Positions 1-33,958 of a stretch of 64,000 nt of DNA are shown in pieces. Under the pieces are notes generated by a model. The model was not told where the DNA came from, searched no databases, and worked only from the letters and a program-made list of their open reading frames with translations. Location of the stretch: positions 657,992 to 721,991 of the forward strand of contig JAUJOT010000001.1 of assembly GCA_030447505.1 (NCBI GenBank). The letters are read 5' to 3'. A program made the translations under genes and the position numbers. The DNA comes from Solirubrobacteraceae bacterium (lineage in GTDB: Bacteria; Actinomycetota; Thermoleophilia; Solirubrobacterales; Solirubrobacteraceae). Positions within the stretch are counted from its first letter, which is position 1, and the number at the start of each line of letters is the position of its first letter.

Positions 1-519
1 ATGGCCTACTACGTCGATCAGGCGGGCGACAGCACGCACGTCAACTACGAGCCGTCGATCCTCGGCGGGCTGCGCGAGGCCGAGGCGCCCGGTCACGAAG
101 AGGTCGGTCCGCTGATCTCCGGCCGGCTCTCGCGCAAGCGGATCCCGCGTACGAACGACTACGCGCAGGCCGGCGAGCGCTACCAGCTCTCGGAGCAGTG
201 GGAGAAGGACGACCTCGTCCTCAACCTCGTCGACGCGCTGTCGCAGTGCGACCGCCCCGTGCAGGAGCGGATGCTCTGGCACCTCTACATGGTCGAGGAC
301 GAGCTCGGCGCCCGCGTCGGCGAGGGCATCGGCATCTCGCTCGCCGAGGTCAAGGACATGGCGCCGCTTGCGACGCAGACCCTGACCGACGAGGAGGAGC
401 AGCGCCGCCGCAACCTCGGCGACAACGGCCCGCGCAACGTCGAAGGACACGTGATGACGCACTGCGTGCCCAACGAGCGCGTCGCCGTGGCCGACGAGCC
501 GGACTACGCCGGGGTCTAG
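1..519 (+). CDS. Catalase, C-terminal part (gene enters from outside the window)
   Basis: The frame is open from base 1, so the ATG at position 1 is probably an internal codon. The 172 residues resemble the C-terminus of a small-subunit haem catalase: a VNYEPSIL stretch near residue 15, then the helical catalase immune-responsive region with the typical LVDALSQC and QERMLWHLYMV stretches. Catalases break hydrogen peroxide into water and oxygen. The catalytic His/Asn and the haem-ligand Tyr lie upstream and cannot be checked. The next gene starts 3 bases after the stop codon. Confidence 0.85.
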   Translation: MAYYVDQAGDSTHVNYEPSILGGLREAEAPGHEEVGPLISGRLSRKRIPRTNDYAQAGERYQLSEQWEKDDLVLNLVDALSQCDRPVQERMLWHLYMVEDELGARVGEGIGISLAEVKDMAPLATQTLTDEEEQRRRNLGDNGPRNVEGHVMTHCVPNERVAVADEPDYAGV

Positions 520-521
520 GC

Positions 522-734
522 ATGGACGAGGAGGCCGACCGTATGCAGGCCCGGCTCGACGAGCTCGACGAACACATCGACGACGCTGCGAAGAAGGCGC
601 AGAAGACCCGCGAGCAGGCCGATCCGGATGCCGACGAGCCGGTCGGCGAGGTCGTCGGCGACTGGTCGGACATGGCGCGCAGCGACGACGATCCCTCCGG
701 CGCGTTCGACGACGCGTCGGAGAAGGGCCCGTAG
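522..734 (+). CDS. Small acidic hypothetical protein
   Basis: This is a 70-residue, highly charged protein starting at an ATG 3 bases after the catalase stop codon, so it is probably co-transcribed with catalase. The first half (MDEEADRMQARLDELDEHID) is a predicted amphipathic helix that could form a coiled coil; the second half is Asp/Glu-rich and probably disordered. No cysteines, membrane segment or catalytic motif are visible. I do not recognise a characterised family. Codon bias matches its neighbours, which supports a real gene. Confidence 0.65.
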   Translation: MDEEADRMQARLDELDEHIDDAAKKAQKTREQADPDADEPVGEVVGDWSDMARSDDDPSGAFDDASEKGP

Positions 735-773
735 CCTGGATTGACCGGGCCGCCGGGCGGGAACACGCGCGAG

Positions 774-1286
774 ATGCCGTCAACGACCAGACAACTGCCG
801 CGCTCGCCGTTGGACGGCTACGCGCCGCCCGGCGAGGAGCGCCCGCTCGCCAGCTACTCGCTGCTGACCTCCGTGTTCTCGGCGAGCTTCGTCGGCGCGC
901 TCGTCGCCGCCCACCGCGCCGGCTACACGCTGCCCCAGGAGCACCGCGTGAAGGACATCGTCCTCACCGGGTTGGCGACGCACAAGCTCAGCCGCCTCGT
1001 CGCGCGCGACAAGGTGACCGCCTTCGCGCGCGCCCCCTTCACCCGCTTTCAGGAGGCGGCCGGGCACGCCGAGGTCGACGAGGAGCCGCGCGGCGGCGGC
1101 CTGCGGCTGGCGGTCGGCGAGCTGCTCGTCTGTCCTTACTGCCTGGCGCAGTGGATCGCCGGCGCGTTCACCGTCGGCCATGTCGTCGCGCCGCGCGTGA
1201 CGCGGCTGCTGACGGCGATGTGGAGCGCGCATGCGATCGCCGACGCCGCGCAACTCGCATACAGCGCGGCCGAAAAGCGTTCCTGA
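774..1286 (+). CDS. DUF1360 family membrane protein
   Basis: The protein has a hydrophobic segment near residues 30-45 (LLTSVFSASFVGALVAA), the THKLSRLVARDKVTAFARAPF stretch typical of DUF1360, and a second hydrophobic region starting with a conserved CPYCLAQWIAG motif. DUF1360 proteins are small bacterial membrane proteins of unknown function, sometimes linked to sporulation or stress. I chose the ATG at 774; an in-frame TTG at 741 would add 11 residues of low quality. The gene follows the catalase and the small acidic gene in the same direction. Confidence 0.75.
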   Translation: MPSTTRQLPRSPLDGYAPPGEERPLASYSLLTSVFSASFVGALVAAHRAGYTLPQEHRVKDIVLTGLATHKLSRLVARDKVTAFARAPFTRFQEAAGHAEVDEEPRGGGLRLAVGELLVCPYCLAQWIAGAFTVGHVVAPRVTRLLTAMWSAHAIADAAQLAYSAAEKRS

Positions 1287-1304
1287 GGCGAGCGGCTCGG
1301 GTAC
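1279..1304 (+). promoter_or_regulatory. Weak candidate SigB/SigF-type promoter
   Basis: A GTTC element is separated by 16 bases from GGGTAC, resembling the GTTT-N14-16-GGGTA form used by actinobacterial SigB/SigF-like factors. It overlaps the end of the DUF1360 gene and lies about 120 bases before the sigma-factor gene, so it could mark autoregulation. The -35 match is imperfect, so confidence is low. Confidence 0.25.
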
Positions 1305-1422
1305 GCTGTAGCGAGTGCGCCTGCTCTGAAGGCGGGGGCTCATTACACCGCTTCGAAGACGTTCGGCATCAACCGTTGGTGCATGTACCGGCTTCGTGTC
1401 AATTCAATGACCGGAGTATCGC

Positions 1423-2205
1423 GTGCCCAACACGTATCACTCGTCGGATCTCGCCAGAACACGTCATGACCGCCTGCTCCTGGGCCGGATGGCCGGCGGC
1501 GATCCGCATGCGCGCGAAGCGCTTGTCGAGCGCTTTCTGCCGCTCGCCCACAAGCTCGCCCGGCGCTACTCCAGCGGCCATGACACGTACGACGACGTCT
1601 TCCAGGTCGCCTGCCTCGGCCTGCTGAAGGCGATCGACGGCTTCGACGTGCAGCGCGAGGTCGCGTTCTCCTCGTACGCGGTGCCGACGATCGTCGGCGA
1701 GCTCAAGCGCTACTTCCGCGACCGCACCTGGAGCGTGCGCCCCCCGCGTGACCTGCTCGAGCGCGCGCTGCGGATCGAGCGTACGAGGGAGCGCCTGAGC
1801 GAGCAGCTGCATCACGCGCCGACGATCAGCCAGCTCGCCGAGCAGCTCGACCTGACGTGCGAGCAGGTGCTCGAGGGACTCGAGGCCGGCCGCGCACAGC
1901 ATGGCGCGTCGCTCGACGCGCCGCTGGACCACACCGAGGAGGCTCGCTCGCTGGCGGATCTCTTCGGCGACGTCGACGATGGCTTTGCGCGCGCCGAGCA
2001 GCGCGTGCTCGCCGAGCAGCTCGGACGCGGGCTCTGTGAGCGCGACCGCGAGATCCTGCGGCTGCGCTTCGAGGAGGACATGACGCAGAGCGAGATCGGC
2101 GCGATGCTCGGCGTCAGCCAGATGCAGGTCTCGCGACTGATCCGCAGCGCGCTCGAGCGACTGCGTGCGGTTGCGGCCCACGATGAGCAGATGGCGCTCG
2201 TGTGA
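1423..2205 (+). CDS. RNA polymerase sigma factor, SigB/SigF/SigG type
   Basis: The 260-residue protein has the sigma-70 group 3 layout. Region 2 (about residues 30-100) contains DDVFQVACLGLLKAID and FSSYAVPTIVGELKRYFRD; region 3 follows from about 105 (RLSEQLHHAPTISQLAEQLD); region 4 ends the protein with a helix-turn-helix, MTQSEIGAMLGVSQMQVSRLI. This combination is typical of stress-response sigma factors controlled by anti-sigma partner switching. The GTG start is preceded by a GGAG about 7 bases upstream. No anti-sigma or STAS anti-anti-sigma gene sits next to it, but an RsbU/RsbW-like fusion lies 8 kb downstream behind a promoter of the type this factor could read. Confidence 0.93.
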   Translation: MPNTYHSSDLARTRHDRLLLGRMAGGDPHAREALVERFLPLAHKLARRYSSGHDTYDDVFQVACLGLLKAIDGFDVQREVAFSSYAVPTIVGELKRYFRDRTWSVRPPRDLLERALRIERTRERLSEQLHHAPTISQLAEQLDLTCEQVLEGLEAGRAQHGASLDAPLDHTEEARSLADLFGDVDDGFARAEQRVLAEQLGRGLCERDREILRLRFEEDMTQSEIGAMLGVSQMQVSRLIRSALERLRAVAAHDEQMALV

Positions 2206-2208
2206 CGT

Positions 2209-2649
2209 TTGCCCCTGCGCCAGGTGCGGTACTCCGATCTGATCGAGAGCTCGAGAACACCGCCGCGCGAAGCTTCTGCCGCTGACCTCGTCAAGCAGGT
2301 CTCCGAGCAGACCCAGCGCCTGATCCGCCAGGAGCTCGCGCTCGCGCGCCTGGAGATCACCGACAAGGCAAAGCACGCCGGCATCGGCGCCGGCATGCTC
2401 GCCGGCGCCGGCTTCGTCGCGTTCCTCGGGGTCGGCACGCTCGTCGCGATGCTGGTGCTGCTCCTCGCGCAGGCCCTCGACGCCTGGCTCGCCGCGCTGA
2501 TCGTCGCGGTCCTGCTGCTCGCCGTGGCGGGGCTGATGGCCGTGATGGGCAAGGGTCAGCTCCAGCGCGCTGCACCGGCCGCGCCCGAGCAGACGATCGA
2601 GAGCCTCAAGGCCGACGTCGAAGAGGTCCGCGCGCACGCGCAGACGTAA
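2209..2649 (+). CDS. Phage-holin family (actinobacterial Holin-X-like) membrane protein
   Basis: The 146-residue protein has an N-terminal amphipathic helix (LVKQVSEQTQRLIRQELALARLEI), two adjacent membrane helices around residues 63-115, and a charged tail. This is the layout of the actinobacterial Holin-X/DUF1469 group, found on many actinobacterial chromosomes without a prophage; its function is not established. The TTG start lies 3 bases after the sigma-factor stop, so the two are probably co-transcribed. A GTG at 2224 is an alternative start. Nothing nearby suggests a prophage. Confidence 0.72.
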   Translation: MPLRQVRYSDLIESSRTPPREASAADLVKQVSEQTQRLIRQELALARLEITDKAKHAGIGAGMLAGAGFVAFLGVGTLVAMLVLLLAQALDAWLAALIVAVLLLAVAGLMAVMGKGQLQRAAPAAPEQTIESLKADVEEVRAHAQT

Positions 2650-2675
2650 GGCCGTAGGCCGCCCGCACCACTCCA

Positions 2676-2701
2676 GCCCCTTCGCGCGACGAAGGCGGGG
2701 C
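2676..2701 (+). terminator. Possible hairpin terminator after the Holin-X-like gene
   Basis: The sequence gccccttcg-cgcga-cgaaggcggggc can fold into a GC-rich stem with a small bulge. There is no T-run after it, so it is only a tentative terminator between the sigma-factor operon and the kinase operon. Confidence 0.3.
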
Positions 2702-2741
2702 GCGCACGAGCAACGATCGGCTCGCCCCCTTGCCGCAGCAC

Positions 2742-2766
2742 GTTTGAATCCAGGCGGATTGGGTAA
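2742..2766 (+). promoter_or_regulatory. Strong candidate SigB/SigF-type promoter of the kinase operon
   Basis: GTTT at 2742-2745 is followed by exactly 15 bases and then GGGTAA at 2761-2766, a near-consensus match to promoters used by SigB/SigF-type factors. Transcription would start near 2773, leaving a leader of roughly 38 bases before the ATG at 2811. The nearby sigma-factor gene is of the class that reads such promoters, so stress-dependent control of the kinase operon is a reasonable inference. Confidence 0.7.
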
Positions 2767-2810
2767 CGCCGGGCGGTTGGGACGAGCGACGAGTTGGGGG
2801 GACGGGTCGT

Positions 2811-8683
<5,873 letters not shown>

Positions 8684-8687
<4 letters not shown>

Positions 8688-9523
8688 ACGGCGTCGACGA
8701 GCACGACGAAGCTCGTGAGCGCATCGAGATCGACCTGCTGCTCGAGGCCATCCAGCGCCGTTACGGCTACGACTTCCGCGGCTACGCGCTGGCCTCGCTG
8801 CGCCGCCGGCTGTGGCATCGCACCTATGGCGAGGGGCTGCAGACGCTGTCGGGGCTGCAGGAGCGAGTCCTGCACGACCCCGCCTGCATGGACCGCCTGC
8901 TGCGCGACCTGTCGATCAACGTCACGGAGATGTTCCGTGATCCGAGCTTTCACCGCGCGCTGCGCGAGCGCGTCTTCCCGCTGCTGCGGACATATCCGTT
9001 CGTCCGCGTCTGGAATGCCGGCTGCTCGACCGGCGAGGAGATCTACTCCCTGGCGATCGCGCTGCGCGAGGAGGGCCTGCTCGATCGCACGCGGATCTAC
9101 GCGACCGACATCGACGACGGCGCCCTCGAGCGCGCCCGATCGGGATCGTTTCCGCTCGACCGGATGCAGCGCTACACGGAGAACTACCAGCGCGCGGGCG
9201 GCAGCGACGCGTTCTCTTCCTACTACACCGCGTCGGGCGCGTCGGCCCGTTTCGATCCTGCGCTCGCCGCCGGTATGGTCTTCGCCCAGCACAACCTCGT
9301 AACAGACGGCTCCTTCAACGAGTTCCAGCTGATCGTGTGCCGCAACGTGCTGATCTACTTCGGCCCCAAGCTGCAGGAAGAGGTGCTCGGCCTGTTCGGT
9401 CAGAGCATGACGCGCCGCGGGATCCTCGCGCTCGGCCGCAAGGAGTCGATCCGCCACTCGACGCACGCCGACGAGTACGAGCCGCTCGTCGAGAGCGAGA
9501 AGATCTTCAGGCGGCGCTCGTGA
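8684..9523 (+). CDS. cheR: CheR-type chemoreceptor/protein-glutamate methyltransferase
   Basis: The 279-residue protein has the all-helical CheR N-domain (IEIDLLLEAIQRRYGYDFRGY) and a SAM-binding C-domain with NAGCSTGEEIYSLAI, ATDIDDGALERAR and CRNVLIYF, matching CheR. CheR uses SAM to methylate glutamates on chemoreceptors. Its ATG overlaps the kinase stop codon by 4 bases, so translation is coupled to the kinase. No methyl-accepting receptor, CheA or CheW gene is in the window, which suggests the target is the poly-HAMP kinase or another protein encoded elsewhere. Confidence 0.93.
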
Positions 9524-10107
9524 GCGCGACCGGGCTCGTCGCGATCGGCGCCTCGTGGGGTGGGCTGCGCGCTCTCGAGACGGTGCTCGGCGCGCTCCCC
9601 GAGGACTTCGCGGCCCCCGTCGTCATCGCCCAGCACCGCCAGGCCGACGCGACGGACGGAACGCTCGTGCGGCTGCTCGACGCCCGCTGCGCGCTGACCG
9701 TCTGCGAGGCCGAGGACAAGCAGGAGCTCGATCCGGGGCTCGTGCTCGTCGCGCCGCCCGACTACCACCTGCTCGTCGAGCCGGGGGCGGTCGCGCTGTC
9801 GGTCGACCCGCCGCTGAACTACAGCCGGCCGGCGATCGACGTTCTCTTCGGGTCGGTCGCGCACGCCTACGGCGAGCGCGCCGTCGGCGTCGTCCTGACG
9901 GGAGCCAACGCCGACGGCGCGCTCGGCCTTGCGCAGATCGCCGGCCGGGGCGGTACGGCGATCGTGCAGGATCCCGAGACCGCCGAGCGGCGCGAGATGC
10001 CCGAGGCCGCGCTGTGGGCCACTCCCGAGGCGCGCGTGCTCGAGCTCACGCAGATCGCGCCGGCGCTCACCGGGCTCGCCGGGACGCGCGAGGAATCGGC
10101 GCGCTGA
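9520..10107 (+). CDS. cheB: CheB-type methylesterase domain protein (no receiver domain)
   Basis: The 195 residues cover only the CheB methylesterase domain. The catalytic Ser is in IGASWGG, the His in VVIAQHRQ, and the Asp in LTGANADGA. CheB removes methyl groups added by CheR or deamidates glutamines. The usual N-terminal receiver domain is missing, so the enzyme cannot be switched directly by phosphorylation; the receivers of neighbouring proteins could play that part. The GTG start overlaps the cheR stop by 4 bases. Confidence 0.92.
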   Translation: MSATGLVAIGASWGGLRALETVLGALPEDFAAPVVIAQHRQADATDGTLVRLLDARCALTVCEAEDKQELDPGLVLVAPPDYHLLVEPGAVALSVDPPLNYSRPAIDVLFGSVAHAYGERAVGVVLTGANADGALGLAQIAGRGGTAIVQDPETAERREMPEAALWATPEARVLELTQIAPALTGLAGTREESAR

Positions 10108-12569
10108 TGCCCGAGACCGCGGTCCTGCTCGTCGACGATCACGAGGAGAACCTGATCGCGCTCGAGGCGGTCCTCGAGCCGACGGGCTACCGGCTCGTGA
10201 AGGCGCGCTCGGGCGAGGAGGCGCTGCGGGCGCTGCTGCAGGGCGACTTCGCGGCGATCCTGCTCGACGTCCAGATGCCGGGCCTCGACGGCTTCGAGAC
10301 GGCAGAGCTGATCCGCACGCGCGAGCGCTCCCGCTGCGTGCCGATCATCTTCGTCACGGCGATCAGCAAGGCACCCGAGCACGTCTTCCAGGGCTACGAA
10401 GCGGGCGCCGTCGACTACCTCTTCAAGCCCGTCGACGCGGTCGTGCTGCGCTCCAAGGTCGAGGTCTTCGGTCAGCTCTACGAGCGCGGGCGCGCGCTCG
10501 CCGAGCGCGAGGAGCTGCTGCGCGCGACGTTCGATGACGCGCCGATCGGGATGGCGCGGGCCGGCGCCGACGGGCGGCTGCGCCACGTCAACTCGGCGCT
10601 GACGCAAGCCCTCGGGCGAGAGGCCGGCGAGCTGCTCGGGCGCACGCTGGACGAGCTCGGCCCGCGCGCGGAGGCGGGCATCGACGCCGCCCAGCGCGAG
10701 CAGCTGCTCGCCGGGCGGATCGCGCGCTACGAGGTCGAGCGGCGGCTCGTGGGCCCGCGCGGGACGACGATTCCGGTGCTCGTGAGCGCGTCGCTCGCGC
10801 GCTCGGCGAACAACAGCCGGCCCGATCTGATCCTGCAGCTGCAGGACCTGCGCGAGCGCCGCCGCGCGCAGCGCGACCGCGAGCAGCTGATCCGGGCTCA
10901 GGCGGAGCGCGCTCAGGCGGAGGCCGCCGCCGAGCGGTTGCGGATCATGCAGTCGATCGCGGTCGCCGCACTGGGAGCCGAGGATCTCGAGCAGCTCCTG
11001 CGCGAGCTGCTCGACCGGATCCTCGAGGCGCTCGATGTCGACCGTGCCGCGGTCGTGCTGACCGACGAGGCGCCCGCGGTGGTGGCGCGCGCCGCGGGCG
11101 GCGTCGACACCGTCGTCGGGCGCGAGGCTCGCGACGACGTCGACGACATCACCGTGCGCGTCATGCGCGAGGGCGGACCGCTCGCGATCGCGGACCTCCC
11201 CGCCGCCGGCCTCGACGCAAGCTCGCTGGGGCCGGCGATCACGTCGCTGCTGGCGGTGCCGCTCGCCGACGGCGAGCAGGTCATCGGCTCGATCCACGTC
11301 GGCACGCTGACGCGGCGCGACTTCGACGAGGAGACGACCGCCCTGCTGGGCCTGGCGGCGGACCGCGCCGGTCTGGCCATCGCGCGCACGCGCCTGTACG
11401 AGCGCGAGCGGCAGATCGCGGGCGAGCTGCAGCGCTCGCTGCTGCCCAAGCGCCTGCCGCGGGTGCCCGGCGTCGCGCTCGATGCGCGCTACCTGCCGGG
11501 CGTCAACGGGACGACCGTCGGCGGCGACTGGTACGACGCGGTCGCGCTGCCGAGCGGGCACGTCGCGCTGGCGATCGGCGACGTCGTCGGCCGCGGCATC
11601 GCGGCGGCCGCGACGATGGGCCAGATGCGCAGCGCGCTGCGCGCGATCCTGATGCAGGGCGACGACACCGGCGCGATGGCCGACCGCCTCAACCGCTTCG
11701 CGCACGCGCTCGGGCCCGAGGCCGTGATGACGACGGTGGTGCTGGCGATCCTCGAGCCCGCGACCGGCAAGCTGCGCTACACGAACGCCGGTCATCCGCC
11801 GCCGGTGCTCGCCGGCGCCGACGGCCGGGCGCGCTTCCTCGCCGACCCGCCGTCGCCGCCGATGGGCGTGCTGGCGTCGCCGCGCTACACCGAGCACGTG
11901 ACCGTCGTCGAGCCGGGCTCGACGATCGTCCTCTACACCGACGGGCTCGTCGAGGAGCCGAGCGAGGTCCTGGACGTCGGCCTCGAGCGCCTGCTCGATG
12001 CCGCGCGCGGCGCAGGCCGCGACGTCGCCGCGACCTGCGAGCGCCTGCTCGAGCGCGGCCTGCGCGGATCGCCGAGCCGCTCCGATGACGTCACGCTGCT
12101 CGCGGTGCGGATGAACGAGACGCTCGGCGATCAGGTGACGCTCGAGGTCTCCGGCCAGCCCGGCGGGCTCTTCGCGATGCGCCAGACGCTGCGCCGCTGG
12201 CTGAGCGAGACCGCCGCCGACGCATCCGAGGCCGACGACATCGTCATGGCCTGCAACGAGGCCTGCGAGAACTCGGTCGAGCACGGCTACGGGTTCGGCG
12301 ACGACCTCTTCGAGGTGGCCTTCGAGCGCGACGGCGGCGAGGTCACGATCAGGATCCGCGACACCGGCTCCTGGCAGCCACCGCGCGACGAGCCGCACCG
12401 CGGCCGCGGGCTGCCGCTGATCCGCAAGGTCATGGATGCCGTCGAGGTAACGCCGCGCAACGACGGCACGACGGTGCTGATGCGCCGCCGACTGGCGGCC
12501 GCCCCGGCGCCGTCGGATCGCTCCGGCGCCGAGATCGCCGGCTCGCTGGCGCGCGGCGTCAGCCGCTGA
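10107..12569 (+). CDS. REC-PAS-GAF-PP2C phosphatase fused to an RsbW-like HATPase
   Basis: This 820-residue protein starts with a receiver domain (LLVDDHEENL, phospho-acceptor LLDVQMPG, residues 1-125), then a PAS domain (about 140-255), a short coiled coil and a GAF domain (about 275-430). A SpoIIE/RsbU-type PP2C phosphatase follows (about 435-670) with VGGDWYDAV, DVVGRGIAA and YTDGLVEEP. The C-terminus is an RsbW/SpoIIAB-type HATPase (about 680-800) with NEACENSVEHGYG and GRGLPLI. Such fusions control partner-switching pathways by dephosphorylating STAS anti-anti-sigma proteins and binding or phosphorylating them or sigma factors. The start overlaps the cheB stop (TGATG). No STAS partner is nearby. 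It is the probable output of the poly-HAMP kinase. Confidence 0.93.
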   Translation: MPETAVLLVDDHEENLIALEAVLEPTGYRLVKARSGEEALRALLQGDFAAILLDVQMPGLDGFETAELIRTRERSRCVPIIFVTAISKAPEHVFQGYEAGAVDYLFKPVDAVVLRSKVEVFGQLYERGRALAEREELLRATFDDAPIGMARAGADGRLRHVNSALTQALGREAGELLGRTLDELGPRAEAGIDAAQREQLLAGRIARYEVERRLVGPRGTTIPVLVSASLARSANNSRPDLILQLQDLRERRRAQRDREQLIRAQAERAQAEAAAERLRIMQSIAVAALGAEDLEQLLRELLDRILEALDVDRAAVVLTDEAPAVVARAAGGVDTVVGREARDDVDDITVRVMREGGPLAIADLPAAGLDASSLGPAITSLLAVPLADGEQVIGSIHVGTLTRRDFDEETTALLGLAADRAGLAIARTRLYERERQIAGELQRSLLPKRLPRVPGVALDARYLPGVNGTTVGGDWYDAVALPSGHVALAIGDVVGRGIAAAATMGQMRSALRAILMQGDDTGAMADRLNRFAHALGPEAVMTTVVLAILEPATGKLRYTNAGHPPPVLAGADGRARFLADPPSPPMGVLASPRYTEHVTVVEPGSTIVLYTDGLVEEPSEVLDVGLERLLDAARGAGRDVAATCERLLERGLRGSPSRSDDVTLLAVRMNETLGDQVTLEVSGQPGGLFAMRQTLRRWLSETAADASEADDIVMACNEACENSVEHGYGFGDDLFEVAFERDGGEVTIRIRDTGSWQPPRDEPHRGRGLPLIRKVMDAVEVTPRNDGTTVLMRRRLAAAPAPSDRSGAEIAGSLARGVSR

Positions 12570-12605
12570 GCCTCCCGTACGCCCCGCCCCGGGAATAGGC
12601 ACTCC

Positions 12606-13139
12606 TCAACTCGGCCCCTCCGGCTCGCCCGCGAGGCGCGACCAGAAGCGGACCCACTCGCGCTCATGCGCGATACCCGCTTCCAGGGCCAGCAGGGGAC
12701 CGCGTGGCGCCTGCCCCGCGTAGAGCTTGTGGCGGGCGCGGTAGCTCTCGAGTTGGCGGCGGTGGGCCTCGAGGCGCACAGGCGCGAGCCGACTGGGCCG
12801 GGCGTCGAAGAACAGCCTCAGCAGACCCGGATCGCGTAGCTCTGGCAACTCGTCACTTGTCGTCTCGCGCCAGCGCTCGAACGCGCGCAGGCCGCGGCTC
12901 GTCAGCGCGTAGACCTTGCGCGGGCGCCCGCCGGGCGTCGCCTCGCGCCGATCGCTCAGGTAGCCCGCGCGCGCGAGGCGGTCCGCCTCGCGGTAGATCT
13001 GCGAGTGCGGAACGCTCCAGAAGTTGCCGATGCTCGCGGCGACCGCCTGCTTGAGCTCGTACGGCGACGCCTCGGAGAGGCGCGCGAGGAGGCCGAGGAC
13101 GATGAAGGAGGTGGGAGTGAGATCGATCTCGTCCGACAT
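12606..13139 (-). CDS. PadR family transcriptional regulator
   Basis: The 177-residue protein has an N-terminal winged helix typical of PadR (LTPTSFIVLGLLA, SPYELKQAVA, SQIYREADRLARAGYLS, GRPRKVYALTSRGL) and a helical C-terminal part that would mediate dimerisation. PadR proteins are usually repressors that respond to small molecules. The gene is divergent from a DUF2306-like membrane protein, and an 18-bp imperfect palindrome lies 9 bases upstream of its start over the divergent -10 elements, suggesting that it controls itself and the neighbour. Confidence 0.9.
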   Translation of the reverse strand: MSDEIDLTPTSFIVLGLLARLSEASPYELKQAVAASIGNFWSVPHSQIYREADRLARAGYLSDRREATPGGRPRKVYALTSRGLRAFERWRETTSDELPELRDPGLLRLFFDARPSRLAPVRLEAHRRQLESYRARHKLYAGQAPRGPLLALEAGIAHEREWVRFWSRLAGEPEGPS

Positions 13140-13147
13140 GGTACGAT

Positions 13148-13165
13148 TCGGACTATATGATCCGA
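13148..13165. promoter_or_regulatory. Palindromic operator overlapping two divergent -10 elements
   Basis: TCGGA-CTATATGA-TCCGA is an imperfect 18-bp palindrome. It contains TATAGT reading left towards padR and TATGAT reading right towards the DUF2306-like gene; the two hexamers share the TA at 13156-13157. A dimeric PadR bound here would block both promoters. The assignment to PadR is inference from position and symmetry. Confidence 0.6.
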
Positions 13166-13185
13166 ACCGGACGAATGGTAGCGGC

Positions 13186-13614
13186 GTGATCGGCGAGCTC
13201 GTGCACGTCGGCTCGGGCGTGGCCGGGCTGGCGATCGGTCCGATCGCGATCCGTGATGCCGTGCGCGCCGCCGCTCCCGGCGCGGCAGCGGCGGCCTACC
13301 ACTGGCTCGTCGCGGTCGTCGGCGTGTCGGCGGTCGTGCTCGCGTTGCTCGACTTCTCGCGGCTGTGGTTCTTCGTGCCGATCGCGATCGGCACGTACGC
13401 GTTTGCGTTGGTCGGCCACCTCGCCGCCAGACGCCGCTCGGGCCGCTGGCGCCAAGCCCGCGTCCGCGGTACCGCCGGCGCCTACGTCGCACTCGTCACC
13501 GCCGTGTTCGTCGTCAGCGCGAGCGCCTTGCCTCTGATCTGGCTGCTGCCGACAGTCATCGGCGTGCCGGCGATCGAGCGGCTTTGTCGGAGGGCCGAGG
13601 CGCCGGCGACGTGA
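13186..13614 (+). CDS. DUF2306-like integral membrane protein
   Basis: The 142-residue protein has about four membrane helices. The opening GELVHVGSGVAGLAIGPIAI, the central AYHWLVAVVG and the closing LPTVIGVPAI follow the DUF2306 pattern, a family of small membrane proteins without an assigned function. I chose the GTG at 13186, about 19 bases downstream of the likely transcription start; an in-frame ATG at 13138 lies upstream of the promoter palindrome and is unlikely. The divergent PadR gene probably regulates it. Confidence 0.65.
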   Translation: MIGELVHVGSGVAGLAIGPIAIRDAVRAAAPGAAAAAYHWLVAVVGVSAVVLALLDFSRLWFFVPIAIGTYAFALVGHLAARRRSGRWRQARVRGTAGAYVALVTAVFVVSASALPLIWLLPTVIGVPAIERLCRRAEAPAT

Positions 13615-13644
13615 GGGTGCGCGATCCCTGGCACGATCGTCAGG

Positions 13645-15084
13645 GTGAAGCCGGGCCCGCCACCGCTCGCCGACGCCGCCGATCCGCTCGGCAAGCTGCA
13701 GCGCGGGCTCGGCTCGGGCTATCTGTGGGCGCTGGACGCCGATCGCGCGGTCGCGCACGCGCTGCTGATGCACTGCGTCTTCAACGATCCGCGCTGGGAC
13801 CGCCAGCTCGACGACCGCGCCGACTTCCATGCGACGCTCGCGCTCGACGTGCAGCTGCACACCGGCGCGCTCGAGCTGTGGCTGCGCGACAGCGACGAGG
13901 ACGACGCCGATACGACGAGCGACGTGCTGGCGATGCTCGGGCGAATGGCCGTCCGCGGCCACGCCGACGCCCGCCGCGTGCTGCGCGAGTACGTCGCCTA
14001 CGGCCACTTCTGGGCGCGCGCGATCGATCGGCTGATCGGCGACCACGACGCGCTGCACGCCACGATGCCGTGGCCGGAGGTCGTCGCCGGCCTCGACGCC
14101 GTGCTCGTCGAGCGCTTCGGCAGCGACGACGCGCTCGCGGACGCGCTCACCGGCCTCGACCCGCGCGAGCGGCCGTGGACGATGTGGTCGGTCGAGAACC
14201 GCCGCATCGCGCGGGCGTTCGCGCTCGAGCAGCGTGGCGGTGGCGCCGCCCCGGCGCCCAGGGCCTCGTCGCCGAAGCGGCGCAACAGCCGCGAGCGCGA
14301 GCGTCTCCCAGGCGCGCGCCCGCGCGAGATGAGCACCGCCGCGCTGCTGCAGATCGCCGAGGACTCGCGCTGGACGCAGATCGCCGACGAGCTCGCGGGG
14401 CGCGCCGAGCCCGCCGACGTCGAGCTGCTGCTGCAGGCGGCGAACGATCCCGAGGTGCCGATGCGCCGCGCCGCGATCCTCGCGCTCGGACGCCAGGGCC
14501 GGCGCGAGCTGCTGGAGATCGCCGAGCAGGCGACGGCGGACGCCGAGCGCGGCAAGCTGCAGGGCGCGATCGCGCTCGCCCTGGAGGCGATGCCGCTCTC
14601 GCAGACGCGCGCGCTCGCACACGACTGGCTGCAGTCGGCCGACTGGGCGCGGCGGCGCAAGGCGGCCGGGATGCTCGCGACGTGGGCCGAGGACGAGGAC
14701 CTCGAGCCGACGCGGCGCGCGCTGTCGCATGAGCTCGACCTGGGCCTCGACGCAGACGTCTACGTCATCGGCTCGCTCTCCGAGGCGCTCGGCCGCTGCG
14801 GCGTGCACGGGCCGTTCGAGGAGCTGCTGCGCGCCTACGAGGCGATGGCGTACTCCTACGGCCGGCGCTACATCGTCGCCGCGCTGGCCGCGTCGGACCC
14901 GACGTTCGGAGGCGACGTCGCCGTCGAGTGCCTGTGGGACTGCGAGGCCGATACGCGGCGCCTCGCCGCGACGCACGTCGACCGGCGCGTGCGGCTCGCC
15001 TCACAGCGCCTCGACGAGCTCGCGCGCGACAAGGCCCAGGCGGCGTCGGTGCGGGCGGCGGTCGGCGAGCGGTTGCGCGCGTGA
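13645..15084 (+). CDS. HEAT-repeat-like hypothetical protein
   Basis: The 479-residue protein is largely helical. The C-terminal half (from about residue 230) contains HEAT-like units such as DVELLLQAANDPEVPMRRAAILALGRQG and a long region of paired helices. The N-terminal half (residues 15-190) has another helical domain. A basic, Pro/Ala-rich linker (residues 200-225) separates them. HEAT repeats usually serve as protein-binding scaffolds. No catalytic motif is evident. The GTG start was chosen because the frame is best supported from there. The downstream helicase has its own promoter. Confidence 0.7.
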   Translation: MKPGPPPLADAADPLGKLQRGLGSGYLWALDADRAVAHALLMHCVFNDPRWDRQLDDRADFHATLALDVQLHTGALELWLRDSDEDDADTTSDVLAMLGRMAVRGHADARRVLREYVAYGHFWARAIDRLIGDHDALHATMPWPEVVAGLDAVLVERFGSDDALADALTGLDPRERPWTMWSVENRRIARAFALEQRGGGAAPAPRASSPKRRNSRERERLPGARPREMSTAALLQIAEDSRWTQIADELAGRAEPADVELLLQAANDPEVPMRRAAILALGRQGRRELLEIAEQATADAERGKLQGAIALALEAMPLSQTRALAHDWLQSADWARRRKAAGMLATWAEDEDLEPTRRALSHELDLGLDADVYVIGSLSEALGRCGVHGPFEELLRAYEAMAYSYGRRYIVAALAASDPTFGGDVAVECLWDCEADTRRLAATHVDRRVRLASQRLDELARDKAQAASVRAAVGERLRA

Positions 15085-32212: not shown

Positions 32213-33958
32213 ATGAGCAGCGGGCAGACGGCGGCTGCACAGCTGACGCTCGCCCGCGAACTCGGCGCACGCGGCTCCCGCGATCCGATTAGTGACGCAG
32301 ACCCGGCCGGGCCACTCACCCCGGCCGTAGTTGATGTGCTCGCGGCTCTCCCTGCGTGGTGGGAGCGTCGAGCGCATGCGAGCGGTCTCACCGGCCGCTG
32401 GCTCGACTTGACTGAAGCTCTCGGTGCGGTGCCACTGGCGGGAGTCGGCGGCTACTCGACGTCCGCGGAGACGCTCGAGACCTTGACAGGTGACAAGCTT
32501 GGTCGGGCGTATGTGGCCGCGCTCGGTCCGGGCGTACGCGCAAGGCACGGGCGCCACTACACGCCGTTTGATCTAGCCGACCACCTCTGGAAGATGATGC
32601 GCCGCGCACTCGGGCATGCGCGCGGCAAGTCCGGCCCGCTCGGCGGCCTCATGCGCGATCCGGCGTGTGGCGCAGGGGCGCTGCTTCTCCCTCCCCTCCG
32701 CGAGCACCTGCACGCGCTCGCGCACTCGGACCCCCGCGTGACGCTGTCGGGACTGCCGAATCTCATGGAAGGGATAGATGTTGATCCGTCGGCCGTCTGG
32801 GTCGCCAATGTCGTGCTCGCGGCCGAGGCGCTTCCGCTGCTGGCGGCCACGCCGGCCGCCCGCCGGCGACCGCTGCCGGCGCTTGCTCGTGTCGGGGACG
32901 GCCTCGCACCTCAAGATCGCCCTGCGAGAGCGGTCGCAATGAACCCGCCGTACGGCCGCGTGCGGCTCTCGGCCGACGAGCGCGAGCGCTTCGCGCGGGT
33001 CCTCTATGGTCACGCGAACCTCTACTCGCTGTTCATGGCCGCGGCGCTCGACCAGCTCGCCGCCGATGGTGTCCTCGGGGCTCTCATCCCGACCTCTTTC
33101 ACGGCCGGCCGGTACTTCTCGAACCTCCGGGCCGAGCTAGCCCACGTCGCGCCTCTTCGCGAGGCGGCCTTCGTCGCTGAGCGCGATGGCGTGTTCGCCG
33201 GCGTGCTGCAGGAGACTTGCCTCGCGGTCTTCTCGAAGCGGAAGGCGCGCCGCACCACGGTCGTGTGTTTGAACGGCCGCGTCGTCGCTGTAGCGAAGGT
33301 GCGCTCGCCTCGGGGTGCGGCACCGTGGTTGCTTCCTCGTAGGTCCGATGACGCACACGTCGCTGCGGCGGCGTCCGCGATGCCTGTGTCGCTCGCGTCG
33401 AGCGGCTGGAAGGCATCGACTGGCCCGCTCGTCTGGAACAGGCGTCGGCAAGACCTCTACGCAGAGGGCGGCGAGAGGCGCAAGATGATCGTGTGGGCAG
33501 CCGACCTCGACGGCGGGCAGCTTCACCGAGACAAGCAACGTGATCCGTTCCGATTCATCGAGCTGCGAGATGAACGCGACGTCGCGGTGCTCACGCTCTC
33601 CTCGCCGGCCGTGCTCGTGCAAAGGACGACAGCGCCAGAGCAGGAGCGCCGCGTCGTCTGCGTCGAGCTGACGCGCGCAGACCTTGACGCCTGGGGCGGC
33701 GCTGTTGTTGTTGAGAACCATGTCAATGTCCTCCGCCCGAGGGATGGCGAAGCTCCGCTCATCACACAGCCGACGCTCAGCGCCGTCCTCAGCACGCGGT
33801 GCGTGGACAGGTTGGTGCGGTGTCTGTCGGGCTCCGTTGCTCTGAGCGCATACGAGCTTGAGGCGCTGCCGCTGCCGGACGCGGAGACGCTGGCCGCATG
33901 GGAGGGCCTGCGAGGGGCGGAGCTTGAGAGCGCGGTCACGGCCGCCTACCGGCCGTAG
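32213..33958 (+). CDS. N6-adenine DNA methyltransferase of a type II restriction-modification system
   Basis: The 581-residue protein has a helical N-terminal region, the RHGRHYTPFDLADHLW stretch (motif X region), motif I MRDPACGAGALLLPPL, an acidic loop (EGIDVDPSAVWVA), and the catalytic motif IV VAMNPPYGRV. NPPY is the signature of adenine-N6 methyltransferases; motif order is that of the Eco57I/N6-Mtase gamma-like class. The C-terminal 280 residues probably form the target-recognition domain. The stop codon overlaps the start of the restriction gene (TAGTG). Codon use is less GC-biased than the flanks, indicating horizontal acquisition. Confidence 0.88.
   Translation: MSSGQTAAAQLTLARELGARGSRDPISDADPAGPLTPAVVDVLAALPAWWERRAHASGLTGRWLDLTEALGAVPLAGVGGYSTSAETLETLTGDKLGRAYVAALGPGVRARHGRHYTPFDLADHLWKMMRRALGHARGKSGPLGGLMRDPACGAGALLLPPLREHLHALAHSDPRVTLSGLPNLMEGIDVDPSAVWVANVVLAAEALPLLAATPAARRRPLPALARVGDGLAPQDRPARAVAMNPPYGRVRLSADERERFARVLYGHANLYSLFMAAALDQLAADGVLGALIPTSFTAGRYFSNLRAELAHVAPLREAAFVAERDGVFAGVLQETCLAVFSKRKARRTTVVCLNGRVVAVAKVRSPRGAAPWLLPRRSDDAHVAAAASAMPVSLASSGWKASTGPLVWNRRRQDLYAEGGERRKMIVWAADLDGGQLHRDKQRDPFRFIELRDERDVAVLTLSSPAVLVQRTTAPEQERRVVCVELTRADLDAWGGAVVVENHVNVLRPRDGEAPLITQPTLSAVLSTRCVDRLVRCLSGSVALSAYELEALPLPDAETLAAWEGLRGAELESAVTAAYRP

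What the first reader, a model, noticed from the sequence alone, without database searches (positions are those of the whole stretch)
2742..12569. Poly-HAMP kinase, CheR, CheB and an RsbU/RsbW fusion form one operon behind a SigB-type promoter
Four genes joined by 1-4-base overlaps encode a sensor kinase with about 21 HAMP modules, a receptor methyltransferase and methylesterase, and a protein with both PP2C phosphatase and anti-sigma-kinase-like domains. Chemotaxis-type methylation has no obvious receptor here: no MCP, CheA or CheW is present. One reading is a stress-response system in which CheR/CheB adapt the kinase and its receivers pass signals to a partner switch that controls the sigma factor encoded just upstream; that factor may in turn drive the operon.
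Basis: partly seen in the sequence, partly recalled or inferred. Interest (0 to 1): 0.75.

Follow-up and report, generated by a model that had tools for sequence, protein, structure and literature searches.

The report
Stress kinase with its own methylation pair
A bacterium with no detectable chemotaxis receptors keeps one methylating and one demethylating enzyme of the chemotaxis kind in an operon with a huge stress-sensing kinase and a phosphatase/anti-sigma protein, which suggests that reversible methylation tunes a stress response rather than swimming.

Summary
Four overlapping genes at 2811-12569 encode a soluble hybrid kinase with 21 HAMP modules, a CheR, a receiver-less CheB, and a REC-PAS-GAF-PP2C-RsbW protein. 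The genome has no MCP and no CheW domain, and only this one CheR and this one CheB. The core HK-CheR-(CheB)-REC-X is a widespread module: 80 loci from 11 phyla. Its known member is RsbK-RsbM-RsbY of Bacillus cereus, where RsbM methylates RsbK on the signalling helix; P. putida cfcABCDE is the same kind of cluster. The poly-HAMP kinase plus PP2C/anti-sigma half resembles Streptomyces OsaA/OsaC. The window genus joins the two with a dedicated CheB. The shared CheR-linked feature is a Glu-Glu heptad ladder in the helix before HisKA: 4 or more EE pairs in 15/15 poly-HAMP kinases with adjacent CheR, 3 or fewer in 17/17 without. A later sample agreed, though few comparisons are phylogenetically independent. 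The sigma loop is weaker: the upstream sigma gene is shared with only one congener, the promoter's -35 is not conserved, and the genome has at least six SigB/F paralogues. Most likely: the kinase phosphorylates the REC of the PP2C-RsbW protein, CheR/CheB set its gain, and a SigB/F-type sigma, not necessarily the neighbour, is the output.

The parts
1423..2205 (+). SigB/SigF-type sigma factor; candidate but not demonstrated target
   Evidence: TIGR02980 SigBFG E=1.8e-73, above cut-off; adjacent only in window and G175
2209..2649 (+). Phage_holin_3_6 (Actinobacterial Holin-X) membrane protein between sigma gene and operon
   Evidence: PF07332 E=2.4e-36
2742..2765 (+). SigB-like promoter match GTTTGA-N13-GGGTA; tentative
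   Evidence: only match in 64 kb, 0.05 expected; -35 not conserved in congeners, GGGTA kept in 2 of 5
2811..8687 (+). Soluble hybrid histidine kinase, 1958 aa: 21 HAMP, GAF, S-helix, HisKA, HATPase, 3 RECs (RsbK/OsaA-like)
6303..6638 (+). S-helix (residues 1165-1276) with Glu-Glu pairs at 1191/1192, 1198/1199, 1218/1219, 1226/1227, 1233/1234: proposed CheR/CheB substrate
   Evidence: gap-free alignment relative to phospho-His in 79 CheR-neighbour kinases; EE pairs track CheR
6666..6668 (+). Codon of predicted phospho-acceptor His1286
   Evidence: [10 protein letters not shown] at 1285-1294
7527..7865 (+). REC1 of the kinase, probably a pseudo-receiver: Ala in place of the phospho-acceptor Asp (DVIVLAVP)
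8328..8663 (+). REC3 of the kinase (residues 1840-1951), phospho-acceptor motif intact; candidate inhibitory receiver as in RsbK
   Evidence: PMC4574943
8684..9523 (+). CheR-type glutamate methyltransferase (RsbM-like); only CheR in the genome
   Evidence: PF01739 E=8e-38, PF03705; single genome hit
9520..10107 (+). CheB methylesterase domain without receiver; catalytic Ser/His/Asp motifs present; only CheB in the genome
   Evidence: PF01339 E=4.8e-55; motifs; single genome hit
10107..12569 (+). REC-PAS-GAF-SpoIIE(PP2C)-HATPase_c_2(RsbW-like) output protein, 820 aa (RsbY plus anti-sigma-kinase domain)
   Evidence: motifs intact
10122..10460 (+). Receiver domain of the output protein, Asp in LLDVQMP: proposed target of the kinase
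   Evidence: 68-73% identical to receivers of REC-HK partners in other CheR/CheB clusters

Best explanation
This is an RsbK-RsbM-RsbY/Osa-like stress-signalling operon with a full CheR/CheB pair. The cytosolic poly-HAMP/GAF kinase senses an internal cue and phosphorylates the receiver of the fourth protein. That changes its PP2C activity on a phosphorylated STAS anti-anti-sigma protein. The RsbW-like domain of the same protein acts on the same switch, and a SigB/F-type sigma factor is released or held. CheR adds and CheB removes methyl groups on Glu residues of the S-helix between GAF and HisKA, setting the gain or resetting the kinase after stimulation. Shown here: gene content, intact catalytic motifs, conserved order, the lack of MCP and CheW-domain proteins, uniqueness of CheR and CheB, and the S-helix Glu ladder that tracks CheR. 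Inferred: the methylation itself, its site, phosphotransfer, the sign of regulation, and which STAS protein and sigma factor are used.
For: (1) All 12 closest CheR homologues in the class (54% identity or more) have the same HK/CheB/receiver neighbourhood as far as their contigs reach; one lacks the large REC-X gene. (2) 80 homologous loci in 11 phyla: an S-helix kinase next to CheR in 67 by script, several misses being truncated contigs or ORF-calling cases. (3) In B. cereus RsbM, the same kind of CheR in the same position, methylates RsbK on the S-helix (PMC4574943). (4) No MCP and no CheW domain, single CheR and CheB in the genome; 10 of 12 genomes with the orthologue have no MCP hit at all (one further only sub-threshold). 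(5) EE pairs in the S-helix: 4-7 in 15 poly-HAMP kinases with CheR, 0-3 in 17 without; pair -53/-52 in 14/15 versus 0/17. A later sample of 9 further loci without an adjacent CheR and 2 congeners with CheR agreed. (6) A same-family relative (L225) has kinase + REC-PP2C-RsbW with no CheR/CheB between them and only 2 EE pairs. (7) Bacillota loci of the module place PP2C, RsbW and SigB-type genes beside it in 9-12 of 20; a congener has Sig-STAS-Sig beside the operon. (8) 13 STAS hits in the genome, most with the DST/DSS/DSA motif.
Against: No methylation or phosphotransfer was measured. The CheR-EE association rests on few independent changes (5 on the best tree, 1 on well-supported branches), and the EE threshold was chosen after seeing the data. 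The position of the preferred B. cereus site as I recall it (Glu439, -66) is Leu in the window kinase; only the minor site's position (Glu446, -59) is Glu. In P. putida, mutants of the other cfc genes were reported, as unpublished results, not to lose the crinkle phenotype (PMC4951495). The genome has at least six SigB/F paralogues and many STAS proteins, so the output is open.
Confidence: 0.72

Rival explanations
1. One reading: the SigB-type factor encoded just upstream is the target of the PP2C/RsbW protein and drives the operon from the promoter at 2742.
For: Unique promoter match; sigma gene 0.6 kb upstream; the GGGTA element is kept at about the same place in two congeners; a SigB-like match lies upstream of the sigma gene in G175.
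Against: Sigma orthologue adjacent only in two species although six congeneric genomes keep the kinase; -35 not conserved; another congener has different sigma genes on the other side; at least six SigB/F paralogues in the genome.
Confidence: 0.3
2. CheR/CheB modify some other protein, not the kinase.
For: No direct methylation data for this kinase; CheR enzymes usually act on MCPs.
Against: No MCP or CheW domain in the genome; CheR is next to an S-helix kinase in most of 80 loci from 11 phyla; B. cereus precedent (PMC4574943).
Confidence: 0.08
3. The CheR/CheB substrate is the HAMP array rather than the S-helix; the HAMP stack is the adaptation region.
For: The kinase is dominated by 21 HAMP modules, coiled-coil elements that resemble chemoreceptor parts.
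Against: HAMP arrays are about 72-80% identical in kinases with and without CheR, and most CheR-linked kinases of other phyla have few or no HAMPs.
Confidence: 0.07
4. The output protein controls a non-sigma partner, for example an enzyme regulated by a STAS protein; the RsbW-like domain phosphorylates STAS proteins without holding a sigma factor.
For: The genome has 13 STAS hits and several other SpoIIE and RsbW-like genes; most REC-X partners of this module in other phyla are REC-HK proteins with no sigma link.
Against: Bacillota relatives and the Osa system act on SigB-type factors (PMC4574943, PMC9739842); sigma genes lie beside the operon in three congeneric genomes.
Confidence: 0.2

Closest known systems
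RsbK-RsbM-RsbY of Bacillus cereus (PMC4574943; Chen et al. 2012)
   Same: Hybrid kinase with GAF-S-helix-HisKA-HATPase-REC, CheR-type methyltransferase encoded next to it, REC-PP2C phosphatase, SigB-type output; RsbM methylates RsbK on the S-helix and keeps SigB off.
   Different: RsbK is a transmembrane CHASE3-HAMP kinase with one REC; RsbM has no CheB partner; RsbW is a separate gene. Here: 21 soluble HAMPs, three RECs, a dedicated CheB, RsbW-like domain fused to the phosphatase, PAS+GAF in the phosphatase.
OsaA/OsaB/OsaC of Streptomyces coelicolor (PMC9739842, PMC10117811)
   Same: Very large cytosolic hybrid kinase with more than ten HAMP domains; a neighbouring gene combines an anti-sigma kinase with PP2C (the PP2C part from my own knowledge); acts on SigB in osmotic stress.
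   Different: No CheR/CheB; separate transcription units; the S-helix of osaABC-like loci lacks the EE ladder.
cfcABCDE of Pseudomonas putida (PMC4951495)
   Same: Hybrid kinase, CheR, CheB, REC-HK and REC in one cluster; cfcB/cfcC not used in chemotaxis.
   Different: Output is the diguanylate cyclase CfcR; no PP2C, RsbW or sigma.
RsfS-RsfR of Mycobacterium smegmatis (PMC10950880)
   Same: Histidine kinase controls a REC-PP2C phosphatase that acts on the antagonist RsfB of the SigF partner switch.
   Different: No HAMP array, no receiver on the kinase, no RsbM homologue; phosphorylation inhibits the phosphatase.
Chemotaxis adaptation by CheR/CheB
   Same: Same enzyme families; Glu residues on a long coiled coil as proposed substrate.
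   Different: No MCP and no CheA/CheW-type protein in the genome; CheB lacks its usual receiver.

Membership tests
RsbK-RsbM-RsbY module | Hybrid kinase with a S-helix directly before HisKA and one or more RECs, encoded next to a CheR | tested here: met
RsbK-RsbM-RsbY module | Glu in the S-helix at the methylated positions | tested here: inconclusive
   -60/-59 EE present (20/20 Bacillota loci have it); -66 is Leu in the window. Site numbers Glu439/Glu446 are from memory of Chen 2012; H505 from PMC4574943
RsbK-RsbM-RsbY module | CheR methylates the kinase | not testable with these tools
   needs biochemistry
RsbK-RsbM-RsbY module | REC-PP2C phosphatase in the same cluster | tested here: met
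   window 10107-12569
RsbK-RsbM-RsbY module | Methyltransferase without a dedicated CheB | tested here: not met
   CheB at 9520-10107; 0 of 20 Bacillota loci have CheB, 53 of 60 others do. A variation, not a core criterion
Osa system | Soluble hybrid kinase with more than ten HAMPs | tested here: met
   21 HAMPs, no obvious TM helix
Osa system | Anti-sigma-kinase + PP2C protein encoded nearby | tested here: met
   PP2C here precedes the RsbW-like domain
Osa system | No CheR/CheB; genes not transcriptionally coupled | tested here: not met
   single overlapping gene run with CheR/CheB
Chemosensory (Che) pathway | MCP and CheA/CheW | tested here: not met
   PF00015 and PF01584 absent genome-wide
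Sigma-factor partner switch | PP2C phosphatase and RsbW-like kinase with intact motifs, STAS antagonist in the genome | tested here: met
   motifs; STAS
Sigma-factor partner switch | Binding of the RsbW domain to a sigma factor or STAS protein | not testable with these tools
   needs two-hybrid or pull-down

The most novel reading that the evidence does not exclude
In an organism without chemoreceptors, the only methyl-accepting signalling protein is a cytosolic poly-HAMP stress kinase, and CheR plus a receiver-less CheB give the sigma-factor partner switch true reversible sensory adaptation, which the RsbK-RsbM system of Bacillus is not known to have.
Probability: 0.5. Interest if true: 0.65.

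Novelty: new variant of a known kind. Interest (0 to 1): 0.52.

Why it matters
In B. cereus it is not understood how methylation of RsbK is relieved; RsbM has no partner esterase and the chemotaxis CheB was reported not to matter (PMC4574943). Here, and in most non-Bacillota relatives of the module, a CheB is encoded in the cluster, and in this genome it is the only one with no MCP as a competing substrate. That makes this a clean system to ask whether stress kinases adapt as chemoreceptors do. The with/without-CheR comparison also points to specific glutamates to mutate, and shows CheR/CheB as a cassette present or absent between otherwise similar kinase and phosphatase genes.

Tried and rejected
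HAMP array as the CheR-specific feature: rejected, since it is equally similar with and without CheR. Conservation of the promoter as proof of sigma dependence: not found. Adjacent sigma as the obligate partner: rejected as a conserved feature. HmrABCX (PMC11481889) and WelA (PMC8921679) as relatives: their texts mention CheR/CheB only in passing. Independent-pairs test on the tree: too few supported contrasts to reach significance.
Full report
WHAT IS THERE. Four genes on the + strand overlap by 4, 4 and 1 bases: a 1958-aa hybrid kinase (2811-8687), CheR (8684-9523), CheB (9520-10107) and an 820-aa REC-PAS-GAF-PP2C-RsbW protein (10107-12569). Pfam supports every domain. The HAMP count by motif is 21. 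The kinase has no obvious membrane helix: its most hydrophobic 19-mer lies in the GAF domain. Catalytic motifs are intact: SHELRTP (His1286) in the kinase, NAGCSTGEE/CRNVLIYF in CheR, GAS/QH/NADGA in CheB, GGDWYD/GDVVG/SDDVTLL in PP2C, NEACENSVEH/DTG/GRGL in the RsbW-like domain. The phosphorylatable Asp is present in REC2 and REC3 of the kinase and in the receiver of the fourth protein; REC1 of the kinase has Ala instead.

GENOME CONTEXT. The genome (3.84 Mb, 97.65% complete) has one CheR, one CheB, no MCP signalling domain and no CheW domain, which excludes CheA and CheW. Of 12 genomes holding an orthologous CheR, 10 have no MCP hit, one has a single sub-threshold hit and one has seven. A receptor encoded elsewhere as the real substrate is therefore unlikely. 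There are 13 STAS hits, many with the DST/DSS/DSA motif, some beside other SpoIIE or RsbW-like genes, and at least six SigB/F-type sigma genes.

CONSERVATION OF THE MODULE. The 12 CheR orthologues of the class (54-100% identity) have the kinase upstream and CheB downstream wherever the contig reaches; the next gene begins with a receiver in all but one. A scan of one genome per species gave 80 loci in 11 phyla. An S-helix kinase is adjacent to CheR in 67 by script, and several of the 13 misses are truncated contigs or ORF-calling cases. Bacillota never have CheB (0/20), but 12/20 loci have PP2C and 9/20 RsbW plus a SigB-type gene nearby. The other phyla have CheB in 53/60 and receiver-HK outputs, with no PP2C found. 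The window genus combines both: CheB and PP2C-RsbW. The receiver of the fourth protein is 68-73% identical to receivers of REC-HK proteins in other CheR/CheB clusters, whereas its PP2C domain is closest, outside the genus, to REC-PP2C-RsbW proteins of CheR-less loci. This fits a conserved receiver with interchangeable output. In the same family, L225 has kinase + REC-PP2C-RsbW (43% identical over its length) with no CheR/CheB between them.

KNOWN RELATIVES. In B. cereus, RsbM (a CheR-type enzyme) methylates the hybrid kinase RsbK on its S-helix and keeps SigB off; RsbY is the REC-PP2C response regulator, and 127 RsbK-like kinases in 10 phyla had been noted (PMC4574943). P. putida cfcABCDE is the same cluster type with a c-di-GMP output (PMC4951495). 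Streptomyces OsaA has more than ten HAMPs and no TM helix, and OsaC acts on SigB (PMC9739842, PMC10117811). The 6-10 Mb genomes with osaC/osaA/osaB-like order in my set are, by inference, Streptomyces. rsbK and rsbM homologues were also noted in some mycobacteria (PMC8115616).

THE S-HELIX TEST. In 79 kinases next to CheR, the helix before HisKA aligns without gaps relative to the phospho-His, with Leu every seven residues and EE pairs in front of many of them. The window kinase has EE at -95/-94, -88/-87, -68/-67, -60/-59 and -53/-52, that is residues 1191-1234. With His505 as the RsbK phospho-acceptor (PMC4574943) and Glu439/Glu446 as its methylation sites (from my memory of the 2012 abstract, not held in the library), the B. 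cereus sites fall at -66 and -59. The window keeps Glu at -59 but has Leu at -66. Poly-HAMP kinases without adjacent CheR have degenerate pairs (SAEL, NAEL, KAL): 0-3 EE against 4-7 in those with CheR (15 with, 17 without, Mann-Whitney p=3.6e-7); pair -53/-52 is 14/15 vs 0/17. The tree of the catalytic core gives only five changes of CheR status, one of them on well-supported branches, so these p-values overstate the independent evidence. A later sample agreed with the threshold: nine loci without adjacent CheR had 3 or fewer (one on a short contig whose next gene is REC-HK), and two congeners with CheR had 4 and 5. HAMP arrays are about as similar with as without CheR, so they are not the distinguishing feature.

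SIGMA AND PROMOTER. The GTTT-N15-GGGTA match at 2742 is unique in the window. In congeners, GGGTA is kept at about the same place in G175 and G427 but the -35 is not, and three others have no match. The sigma gene is adjacent only in the window species and G175; in G427 two other SigB/F-type genes and a STAS gene lie beyond the opposite end of the operon. The operon is thus recurrently near SigB/F genes, which supports a sigma output in general but not this sigma factor in particular. Genes before it (catalase C-terminal part, DUF1360, Holin-X) fit a stress neighbourhood; that is inference.

MECHANISM (inferred). An internal cue acts through the HAMP stack and GAF domain, the S-helix passes it to HisKA, and phosphate moves to the receiver of the fourth protein, changing its PP2C activity on a STAS protein. 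The RsbW-like domain in the same chain counteracts this or binds the sigma factor. CheR/CheB set the methylation of the S-helix and thereby the kinase's working point. By analogy with RsbK, methylation would favour the inhibitory receiver state; the sign is not known here, since phosphorylation activates RsbY but inhibits RsfR (PMC10950880).

VERDICT. A real, conserved operon and a new variant of the RsbK-RsbM/Osa kind, notable for the dedicated CheB, the poly-HAMP sensor and the MCP-free background.

Noticed in passing
L225 (G077), 151-7365: Same-family relative with poly-HAMP kinase and REC-PP2C-RsbW directly adjacent and no CheR/CheB between them: a natural counterpart without the methylation pair.
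   Followed up: partly
L203 (G427), 1000-13828: Congener with the full operon followed by a convergent SigB/F gene, a STAS gene and a second SigB/F gene.
   Followed up: partly
window 1-516 and 741-1283: C-terminal part of a catalase and a DUF1360 protein upstream of the sigma gene, a possible stress-gene neighbourhood.
   Followed up: no
window 12609-13139 (-): PadR-family regulator convergent with the operon.
   Followed up: no
window 32213-33955: Protein with an Eco57I/N6-DNA-methylase match (PF07669 above cut-off), possibly restriction-modification or defence.
   Followed up: no
80 genome-contig loci (L056-L135): Every Bacillota locus of the CheR/S-helix-kinase module lacks CheB, while 53 of 60 loci of other phyla have one: the best-studied case (B. 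cereus) is the exception.
   Followed up: yes
window kinase REC1, about 7527-7865: First receiver of the kinase has Ala where the phospho-acceptor Asp is expected, so it is probably a pseudo-receiver.
   Followed up: no
G000:C3:648971-649252 (L012), about 9 kb before the window: STAS-domain gene whose usual DST motif reads SCD, a STAS protein that may not be phosphorylated.
   Followed up: no
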